64,000 nt of DNA, taken from the NCBI GenBank assembly GCA_015065925.1, contig SVPL01000004.1, forward strand, positions 1 to 64,000, in the 5' to 3' direction. The position numbers were made by a program, and so were the translations under genes. This stretch comes from Oscillospiraceae bacterium (GTDB lineage Bacteria; Bacillota; Clostridia; Oscillospirales; Acutalibacteraceae). Positions 5,118 to 52,050 of the stretch are shown one piece after another. Position 1 is the first letter of the stretch; every line of letters starts with the position of its first letter. The notes under the pieces were generated by a model. The model was not told the DNA's origin. It was given only the letters and a program-made list of their open reading frames with translations, and made no database searches.

Positions 5118-5145
5118 ATAAGTGTTTTAGTATAATATTAACACT

Positions 5146-5301
5146 TTCTTCTCTCATCCGGACTTTACAGACTATATAAATCTGTTTACCGTCGGTTTTG
5201 GAGTTTCACCAAATCGGCTACGAAAATTTCCGTAGTTCACGGACTTAAAGGCATTTGCCTTATCACCGTCGGTGGGGAATTTCACCCCGCCCCGAAGAAA
5301 T
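5146..5301 (-). promoter_or_regulatory. FMN riboswitch (RFN element)
   Basis: Minus strand: TTCTTCGGGGCGGGGTGAAATTCCCCACCGACGGTGAT...AGTCCGTGAAC...GGTGAAACTCCAAAACCGACGGT...AGTCCGGATGAGAGAAGAAAG matches the RFN consensus blocks. Confidence 0.95.
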
Positions 5302-5344
5302 CTTTTTTACATTATATGATAATCAGTGGCTTTTGTCAACCGTT

Positions 5345-7668: not shown

Positions 7669-7745
7669 CTGATAACTGTTAAAGTCAAGCCAAAGTTAAA
7701 GCCTAAGCTCTGCTTTAACCCAAGCGCTTAGAGGCTTGAAAAAAC

Positions 7746-7851
7746 ATCCCTCCGTCGGAATTACCCGAATCAGGTTCCAGAGTTGGGTAGTAAACCCTCT
7801 CAGCCGAATGACAAAAATCCGCGGAATTTTCGTCAAAAACAGCACCCCTTG
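7746..7851 (-). promoter_or_regulatory. TPP (thi-box) riboswitch
   Basis: Minus strand: GGGGTGCTG...CGGCTGAGAGGGT...ACCCAACTCTGGAACCTGATTCGGGTAATTCCGACGGAGGGATG. Confidence 0.95.
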
Positions 7852-7903
7852 TTTTGTTGTCAAGGCAATTATAATACAGCTTTATAAATTTGTCAAGAAA
7901 AAA

Positions 7904-51305: not shown

Positions 51306-51340
51306 CTACCCTTGACAAAACATAACATTTAGGGTAGAAT
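51306..51340 (+). promoter_or_regulatory. Promoter TTGACA-N17-TAGAAT overlapped by inverted repeat CTACCCT/AGGGTAG
   Basis: TTGACA 51312-51317, TAGAAT 51335-51340; CTACCCT 51306-51312 and AGGGTAG 51331-51337. Confidence 0.6.
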
Positions 51341-51521
51341 TATAAAGGCTTAAAAATTAGGCTGTTTGTTTTGATGGTAACGCGCTAGACTTAGGTTCTG
51401 TACTGTATGTGATTTTGTTGTTGATTACGGTTTTTGCCGTTTTCATAAATGAGGGTTAAGCAATACGCTCCTCCTCGGTTTACCTCCACCGTGTAAAAAT
51501 TAAGAGGTAAAAGCTTAATAT

Positions 51522-51933
51522 GCGGGTGTGGCGGAATTGGGCGAAGCGGAGTGCCGCATCCGGTGGATGAAGAAGGCGCTTCGCTGAGGTGAAAAAATAA
51601 GGAGCAATGCGACGCGCTCCAAGCGAGCAGGGCGACTATATTTTTGAGGGTAACGCGCGTGGCGCGGCTGCCACTTAAAATAAATACTATTTATTATTTT
51701 TTACCTATTATTTATTGCTTTAAATATGCGGGTGTGGCGGAATTGGGCGAAGCAAGGTGCCGCATCCGGTGGATGAAGAAGGCAGCTTGCTGAGGTGAAA
51801 AAACAAGGAGCAATGCGACGCGCTCCAAGCGAGCAGGGCGACTATGTTTTTGAGGGTAACGCGCGTGGCGCGGCTGCCACTTAAAATAAATACTACTTAT
51901 TATTTTTTACCTATTACTTATTGCTTTAAATAT
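51522..51933 (+). repeat. Two tandem 206-bp units, each = 5' end of tRNA-Leu (19 nt) + structured sequence
   Basis: GCGGGTGTGGCGGAATTGG starts at 51522, 51728 and 51934 (the true tRNA); exact 206-bp period; the two units differ at few positions. Confidence 0.9.
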
Positions 51934-52017
51934 GCGGGTGTGGCGGAATTGGCAGACGCGCTAGACTTAGGATCTAGTGTCTTCGATGTGCAGGTTCAAG
52001 TCCTGTCACCCGCACCA
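51934..52017 (+). tRNA. tRNA-Leu (anticodon TAG), CCA encoded
   Basis: GCGGGTGTGGCGGAATTGGCAGACGCGCTAGACTTAGGATCTAGTGTCTTCGATGTGCAGGTTCAAGTCCTGTCACCCGCACCA. Confidence 0.95.
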
Positions 52018-52022
52018 ATTTT

Positions 52023-52050
52023 CGAGGGCAGACCTATGAGTTTGCCCTCG
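52023..52050 (+). terminator. tRNA-Leu terminator
   Basis: CGAGGGCAGACCTATGAGTTTGCCCTCG then TTATTTTAT. Confidence 0.7.

What the first reader, a model, noticed from the sequence alone, without database searches (positions are those of the whole stretch)
51522..52017. tRNA-Leu preceded by two exact-period (206 bp) chimeras carrying its 5' 19 nt fused to a covarying structured element
GCGGGTGTGGCGGAATTGG occurs at 51522, 51728 and 51934; only the last continues as a real tRNA. After it each chimera folds: AGCGGAGTGCC...GGCGCTTCGCT (11/11 pairs counting two G-U) in unit 1 versus AGCAAGGTGCC...GGCAGCTTGCT (10/11) in unit 2, with paired substitutions (G-C to A-T, A-T to G-C) that preserve pairing. 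An inner hairpin CATCC-GGT-GGATG, GGAGC...GCTCC and GTGGC...GCCAC follow. Compensatory change between tandem copies in the same genome implies the fold matters (RNA or DNA hairpin). It could be a mobile structured element that inserts in the tRNA D-arm and regenerates the tRNA.
Basis: seen in the sequence. Interest (0 to 1): 0.75.

Follow-up and report, generated by a model that had tools for sequence, protein, structure and literature searches.

The report
Hairpin RNA element interrupting tRNA copies
The two odd units in front of a leucine tRNA gene carry a ~110-base, two-hairpin element found in many gut Clostridia, where it repeatedly sits inside broken spare copies of tRNA genes; it looks like an undescribed small mobile element whose mover is unknown.

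Summary
Two 206-bp units (95% identical) precede tRNA-Leu(UAG) at 51934-52017. Each is the tRNA's first 19 nt, then a ~110-nt two-hairpin element ("el"), then an AT-rich spacer. Nine of the 11 unit differences lie in paired positions: three pairs are fully compensated and one is broken. Across 20 homologs the fold covaries strongly (81 double-sided changes vs 24.7 expected; 0/500 shuffles) on the tRNA-sense strand. No Rfam family matches.

Homologs show that el is not leucine-specific. A covariance model finds it in 43 of 250 family genomes (1-15 copies each). It interrupts partial or extra tRNA copies beside an intact tRNA: Leu (4 anticodons), Thr, Ala, Pro, Asn, Ser and Trp. It also lies at the guaA 3' end, inside a prophage gene, and in intergenic palindromes. 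27 of 60 copies lie within 400 nt of an intact tRNA (random 1.7%), 25 of them on its strand.

In the window the only good promoter lies upstream of everything, so both chimeras probably form the tRNA's transcribed leader.

Best reading: a non-autonomous, structure-bearing mobile element, here in a decayed tandem tRNA-Leu copy and multiplied by recombination between 24-bp repeats. The mobilising enzyme is unidentified. "Regenerates the tRNA" is not shown.

The parts
51312..51340 (+). sigma-70-type promoter TTGACA-17-TAGAAT, the only good promoter for pseudoknot, chimeras and tRNA
   Evidence: 11/12 matches; the only others in the leader match 9/12; same arrangement in homologous loci
51369..51399 (+). 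remnant of a further unit: element/D-loop 3' end (TTTTGATGGTAACGCGC) running into a tRNA-Leu fragment (ACGCGCTAGACTTAGGTTCT)
   Evidence: families D3, D5; similar remnants upstream in L018 and L105
51476..51510 (+). H-type pseudoknot in the tRNA-Leu leader: CGGT 51476-51479 with ACCG 51488-51491; TTACCTC 51480-51486 with GAGGTAA 51504-51510
   Evidence: 14 instances, all upstream of tRNA-Leu (CAG or UAG) genes or their 5' fragments; own loop/tail pairing reached by 0/1000 shuffles
51522..51540 (+). first 19 nt of tRNA-Leu in unit 1 (direct repeat 51517-51540)
51541..51650 (+). two-hairpin element, copy 1
   Evidence: model R1 131 bits, E 1e-26; structure
51648..51672 (+). tail of unit 1: D-loop/D-stem 3' side (GGTAACGCGC) followed by a near-perfect inverted copy of the tRNA D-arm (GCGCGGCTGCC)
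   Evidence: and comparison: varies together with the tRNA sequence between genomes
51728..51746 (+). first 19 nt of tRNA-Leu in unit 2 (direct repeat 51723-51746)
51747..51856 (+). two-hairpin element, copy 2; its unit differs at 1 of 152 nt from the copy before tRNA-Leu(UAG) in congener G004
   Evidence: model R1 129.8 bits, E 2e-26
51854..51878 (+). tail of unit 2, as in unit 1
51934..52017 (+). intact tRNA-Leu(UAG); direct-repeat block 51929-51952
52023..52050 (+). intrinsic terminator of the tRNA transcription unit

Best explanation
The structured part is one copy of a small (~110 nt) non-autonomous mobile element family of gut Clostridia, made of two adjacent hairpins. It inserts, in the sense orientation of the host gene, preferentially into tRNA genes (after G18G19 in the D-loop, in the anticodon arm, in the T-stem) and also at guaA 3' ends and palindromic sites. 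Because an interrupted tRNA is useless, it survives only in spare copies. In the window it sits in the D-loop of a decayed upstream tRNA-Leu duplicate whose 3' half is lost. The unit [tRNA 5' 19 nt - element - spacer] then multiplied and contracted by recombination between the 24-bp repeats, and is read through from one promoter as the leader of the real pre-tRNA-Leu, which RNase P would trim off. Shown: anatomy, covariation, multi-target distribution, co-orientation, single promoter. Inferred: transcription, recombination history, mobility itself, and the mover (a hairpin-recognising single-strand enzyme of the Y1/RAYT type, or a site-specific recombinase, acting in trans).
For: Same element beside the second tRNA-Leu(UAG) of the genome and in congeners. 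43/250 family genomes, 30/135 genera, 1-15 copies. Inserts in copies of tRNA-Leu (CAG, UAG, CAA, UAA), Thr(CGU), Ala(CGC), Pro(UGG, CGG), Asn(GUU), Ser(GCU), Trp; clean full-length case GTTGG{el}TAGAGC in tRNA-Thr (L148). guaA 3' ends confirmed by PF00958. In frame in a prophage tail gene (L118). 27/60 copies within 400 nt of an intact tRNA vs 1.7% of random positions; 25 same strand, 2 opposite. Dispersed similar copies in one genome: G367, 11 copies, mean 92% identity, outer flanks about 49%. Covariation 81 vs 24.7, 0/500; G-U 79 vs A-C 17. One promoter. Decayed tRNA-Leu leaders without the element in G002, G005, G007.
Against: No empty site in a near-identical strain was found, so transposition is inferred. 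No mover identified: RT shows no association, IS110 is almost absent from element-bearing genomes, Y1 only a weak association, and no recombinase in 20 flanking genes. No terminal inverted repeats. Fold conservation on one strand would also suit a functional RNA. Window unit 2 is almost identical to the copy in another species, so the unit persists, as a useful part would.
Confidence: 0.6

Rival explanations
1. Mini integrative element or attachment-site scar: the units are tiny remnants moved in trans by tyrosine recombinases. tRNA genes and the guaA 3' end are classic targets, and the repeated tRNA end is the direct repeat left on integration.
For: IMEs with tyrosine recombinases use tRNA genes and the guaA 3' end, and one flanking repeat restores the gene end (PMC5704250). 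Here X-el-X repeats of 24 to ~85 nt occur, and targets include guaA. Copies in L121 and L138 carry only 12 nt matching the guaA end (GAGTGGGAATAA), like a carried core.
Against: No recombinase in 20 neighbouring genes. The repeated flank is local leader sequence of each genome. Many dispersed intergenic copies. Insertion points scatter over D-stem, D-loop, anticodon arm and T-stem. Not found in INPHARED phages, PLSDB plasmids or exactly in IMG/VR.
Confidence: 0.17
2. Functional leader: chimera plus pseudoknot is a cis-regulatory or processing leader of tRNA-Leu, and the tRNA 5' copy competes with the real one for the tRNA 3' half.
For: One promoter upstream; leader retained across a genus; the 19-nt fragment tracks its own tRNA and can still pair with the 3' acceptor strand; conserved pseudoknot; fold conserved on the sense strand.
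Against: The same element occurs downstream of tRNA-Asn, Ser and Trp, at guaA, in a phage gene and in intergenic palindromes. Congeners G002, G005 and G007 lack it (for G002 and G007). Tandem gene conversion would also keep the 19 nt matched.
Confidence: 0.13
3. Ordinary tandem tRNA duplicates decaying with incidental foldback repeats; the element is a passive intergenic repeat without mobility.
For: Decayed tRNA-Leu leaders without the element; inverted tRNA fragments beside many copies; arrays expand and contract.
Against: One homologous, covarying core in 11 tRNA anticodon classes plus non-tRNA sites; enrichment and co-orientation.
Confidence: 0.05

Closest known systems
Rickettsia palindromic elements (RPE)
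   Same: 100-150 bp, palindromic, many dispersed copies, inserted inside host genes and sometimes in frame (PMC3767692, PMC10969869); mover unknown (own knowledge)
   Different: Clostridia; mainly in tRNA gene copies; two covarying hairpins; no sequence relation was tested
REP/REPIN elements with RAYT (Y1) transposases; IS200/IS605-derived palindromic elements
   Same: short non-autonomous hairpin elements, conserved short tag (TGG) 5' of the hairpin, insertion into palindromes; weak association with Y1 genes
   Different: about 110 nt with two unlike hairpins; no element beside RAYT-like genes; no Y1 found in the window's MAG
Tyrosine-recombinase integrative elements (IME/ICE) at tRNA genes and the guaA 3' end
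   Same: target genes and duplicated gene end
   Different: no recombinase, ~200 bp unit, several insertion points, dispersed copies
tRNA introns (group I, archaeal bulge-helix-bulge)
   Same: structured insert in tRNA loops, same strand
   Different: host tRNA copies are mostly truncated and an intact copy usually stands alongside, so splicing is not indicated; 110 nt is below group I size

Membership tests
Any Rfam 15 family | match at gathering score | tested here: not met
   Searches (whole window; 15 homologous loci): only tRNA, FMN, TPP and Gut-1 hit; nothing credible at E up to 10
HEARO / omega RNA of IscB or TnpB | Rfam HEARO match or TnpB gene in the genome | tested here: not met
   no HEARO match; PF07282 not over cut-off in any of 9 genomes; IscB itself was not searched
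IS200/IS605 or RAYT/REP non-autonomous element | Y1 transposase in the genome and element beside it | tested here: inconclusive
   28/43 element-bearing vs 99/207 other genomes have Y1 (OR 2.0, p 0.045); RAYT-length subset OR 5.4, post hoc; no element next to five RAYT-like genes
IS110 bridge-RNA element | IS110 transposase in element-bearing genomes | tested here: not met
   among element-bearing genomes sampled, strong hit only in G050; weak hits are on ~970-1500-aa proteins
Retroelement / group II intron | reverse transcriptase association | tested here: not met
   14/43 vs 70/207, OR 0.94
Tyrosine-recombinase IME/ICE | recombinase gene at the site | tested here: not met
   none in 20 flanking proteins
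Tyrosine-recombinase IME/ICE | tRNA or guaA target with duplicated gene end | tested here: met
Classical MITE | terminal inverted repeats and target-site duplication | tested here: not met
   ends TGG/GCGAA and GAGGG or GACCG are not inverted repeats; at most a 2-nt GG repeat
Rickettsia palindromic elements | about 100-150 bp palindromic repeat inside genes, in frame | tested here: inconclusive
   size and one in-frame case (L118); sequence homology not tested
tRNA intron | spliced from an otherwise functional tRNA | not testable with these tools
   interrupted copies lack a 3' half or have degenerate acceptor ends; needs RNA data

The most novel reading that the evidence does not exclude
A selfish RNA-level element: it is always carried in the sense strand of transcribed RNAs, enters tRNAs by an RNA reaction (reverse-splicing-like) and returns to DNA by copying and recombination, which would explain sense orientation, preference for tRNA loops and X-el-X duplication of transcript ends.
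Probability: 0.1. Interest if true: 0.9.

Novelty: new variant of a known kind. Interest (0 to 1): 0.62.

Why it matters
A structured element that repeatedly enters tRNA gene copies of seven amino acids, in one orientation, with strong covariation and no Rfam entry, would be a new type of small mobile or RNA-bearing element in abundant gut bacteria. It offers a natural way to study what moves hairpin elements without their own transposase, why tRNA genes are favoured targets, and how tRNA genes are duplicated and repaired. It may also explain apparent tRNA pseudogenes and some assembly breaks in these genomes.

Tried and rejected
Rfam at gathering and permissive thresholds: nothing. omega-RNA idea (tRNA 5' end as guide): no HEARO match, no TnpB over cut-off. 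IS110 bridge RNA: IS110 almost absent from element-bearing genomes. Reverse-transcriptase mobility: no association. Y1/RAYT: weak association only, element not beside the gene. Phage or plasmid origin: no match in INPHARED or PLSDB, no exact core in IMG/VR. Insert-free leader pattern over 295 genomes: only the upstream remnant in G082 matched, so the ancestral leader was not recovered. Unrelated viral scan with the ORF after the tRNA: nothing. Literature searches found no description. Supplementary motif tables of Fremin & Bhatt (PMC8040213) could not be read, so an unnamed prior listing there is possible. A tool error (wrong frame) was dropped.

Full report
OBSERVATION. The window holds two 206-bp units at 51517-51722 and 51723-51928 (95% identical), each starting AATAT + the first 19 nt of tRNA-Leu, and then the intact tRNA-Leu(UAG) at 51934-52017. 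The 11 differences between the units fall on nine paired positions plus two in the spacer; three pairs are compensated on both sides, two switch between G-U and A-U, and one breaks. Unit 2 differs from the unit before tRNA-Leu(UAG) in congener G004 at 1 of 152 nt, whereas unit 1 differs at 10, and unit 1 is nearer the copy on contig C91 (8 differences). The two units are therefore not simply a fresh local duplication.

ANATOMY. Promoter TTGACA-17-TAGAAT at 51312-51340 is the only good promoter. Then come a remnant of an older unit (51369-51399), a pseudoknot (51476-51510), unit 1, unit 2, the tRNA and a terminator (52023-52050). Homologous loci keep one promoter upstream of the whole array, so the chimeras are inferred to be transcribed as the 5' leader of pre-tRNA-Leu. 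After the element each unit has a tail (GGTAACGCGC GTG GCGCGGCTGCC) whose second half is almost the reverse complement of the tRNA D-arm. It changes with the tRNA between genomes (TAGTGCGTCTGCC where the tRNA reads GGCAGACGCACTA, L104 and L105).

STRUCTURE. Twenty homologs (A1) give two adjacent hairpins: stem 1 (11 bp, asymmetric loop, 5-bp hairpin, triloop) and stem 2 (7 bp closing a conserved core with GCTCCAA near its tip). 94.9% of cells are paired, with 81 double-sided changes against 24.7 in shuffles and a covariation score of 0.351 against 0.122, never reached in 500 shuffles; sliding the partner by 1-3 columns destroys it (RNAalifold). In 52 further copies G-U pairs outnumber A-C 79 to 17 (47 to 17 without one doubtful column), so the fold that matters is of the tRNA-sense strand. 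Single-stranded DNA of that strand would also tolerate G-T, so this favours but does not prove RNA.

DISTRIBUTION. The covariance model R1 hits 43 of 250 genomes of the family in 30 of 135 sampled genera, 1-15 copies each; the window's genome has five, two of them weak. Across the class, 10 genomes outside the family give weak hits, and the five contexts inspected look the same or similar. It is absent from phage and plasmid records, and its exact core from IMG/VR.

CONTEXT. The element recurs inside broken copies of tRNA genes: Leu with four anticodons, Thr, Ala, Pro (UGG and CGG), Asn, Ser, and a Trp T-stem fragment. An intact copy usually lies next to it: upstream chimeras for Leu, Thr, Ala, Pro; downstream ones for Asn, Ser, Trp. 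Insertion points are after GG of the D-loop, in the D-stem (Pro), the anticodon arm (Asn) and the T-stem (Ser). L148 is a clean case in a full-length tRNA-Thr copy: GTTGG{element}TAGAGC against GTTGGTAGAGC. Non-tRNA sites: the 3' ends of three guaA genes (PF00958), a prophage tail gene in which the reading frame stays open across the insert (L118; phage c5 homologue without it), and the centres of palindromes GGGCGGG{element}ATATCCCGCCC in G367. Of 60 copies, 27 lie within 400 nt of an intact tRNA against 1.7% of random positions; 25 are on its strand, and the two opposite ones are not inside a tRNA fragment. Subfamilies differ at their ends (GCGAA...GAGGG versus GG...GACCG), and a type B has the same stem 1 with another stem 2 (L037, L134, L138, L139).

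HISTORY. Direct repeats of 24 to about 85 nt of local host sequence flank many copies, some in tandem X-el-X-el-X (L132, L105). Relatives without the element have decayed 5' tRNA-Leu copies in the same leader (G002, G005, G007), so a spare tRNA copy can precede insertion. The simplest account is insertion into a spare copy, loss of the rest of that copy, then growth and shrinkage of the array by recombination between the repeats. This order is inferred.

MOVER. Reverse transcriptase shows no association with the element over the same 250 genomes (OR 0.94), Y1 transposase a weak one (OR 2.0, p 0.045; RAYT-length subset 5.4, post hoc), and IS110 is almost absent from element-bearing genomes. No element lies beside five RAYT-like genes, and none of 20 flanking genes is a recombinase. 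Integrative elements that use tRNA genes and guaA 3' ends (PMC5704250) remain the main mechanistic rival.

KNOWN KINDS. Rickettsia palindromic elements are closest in behaviour (100-150 bp, in genes, sometimes in frame); REP/RAYT elements are closest in likely chemistry. Neither membership is established. No paper found describes this family; the large motif tables of PMC8040213 could not be checked.

VERDICT. It is a member of a wide family that interrupts spare tRNA copies, most likely a non-autonomous mobile element. tRNA regeneration by the element is not shown, and its mover and any host function are open.

Noticed in passing
window 51451-51510; also L012, L013 (two), L015 (two), L020 (two), L051 (two), L054, L057, L058, L106: A separate H-type pseudoknot (CGGT-loop-ACCG TGTAAAAAT tail, often preceded by a short GNGG/CCNC stem) lies in the leader of tRNA-Leu (CAG/UAG) genes or their 5' fragments. 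Loop and tail covary (0/1000 shuffles reach the real pairing). No Rfam match in the window.
   Followed up: partly
L037 unit 2, L134 3174-3245, L138 3956-4064, L139 1755-1863: Type B elements share stem 1 but have another second hairpin (GGCGCCGCGGTCGA...GTCGGGCACCGCAAGAGG); two of them are in the window's own genome.
   Followed up: partly
L127, upstream of the element: A second tRNA-Ala(CGC) copy is interrupted in the anticodon loop by a ~300-nt insert closed by AGGGTGAAAAGAG/CTCTTTTCACCC, a different structured insert in a tRNA.
   Followed up: no
L156-L159 (genome G050): Here the element lies inside a larger dispersed repeat of about 250 bp that continues on both sides; many copies sit at contig ends.
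   Followed up: no
L117, L125: Beside the tRNA-Trp associated copies the flank is an inverted copy of the tRNA-Trp 3' half, suggesting foldback template switching at tRNA genes.
   Followed up: no
L118 3789-4277 (G387): The element is inserted in frame in a prophage tail gene and would add about 37 residues.
   Followed up: partly
L010 and L037, downstream of the intact tRNA-Leu: Short tRNA 3' ends (CACCCGCACCA, ATCCGCACCA) lie after the tRNA-Leu terminator, remnants of a further tRNA copy.
   Followed up: no
window 5142-5303 (-) and 7730-7859 (-): FMN and TPP riboswitches (ordinary).
   Followed up: no
G000 contigs C80 and C91: The MAG has two tRNA-Leu(UAG) genes, both with the element, and is larger (2.57 Mb) than congeners (1.3-2.0 Mb), so mixed strains are possible.
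   Followed up: no
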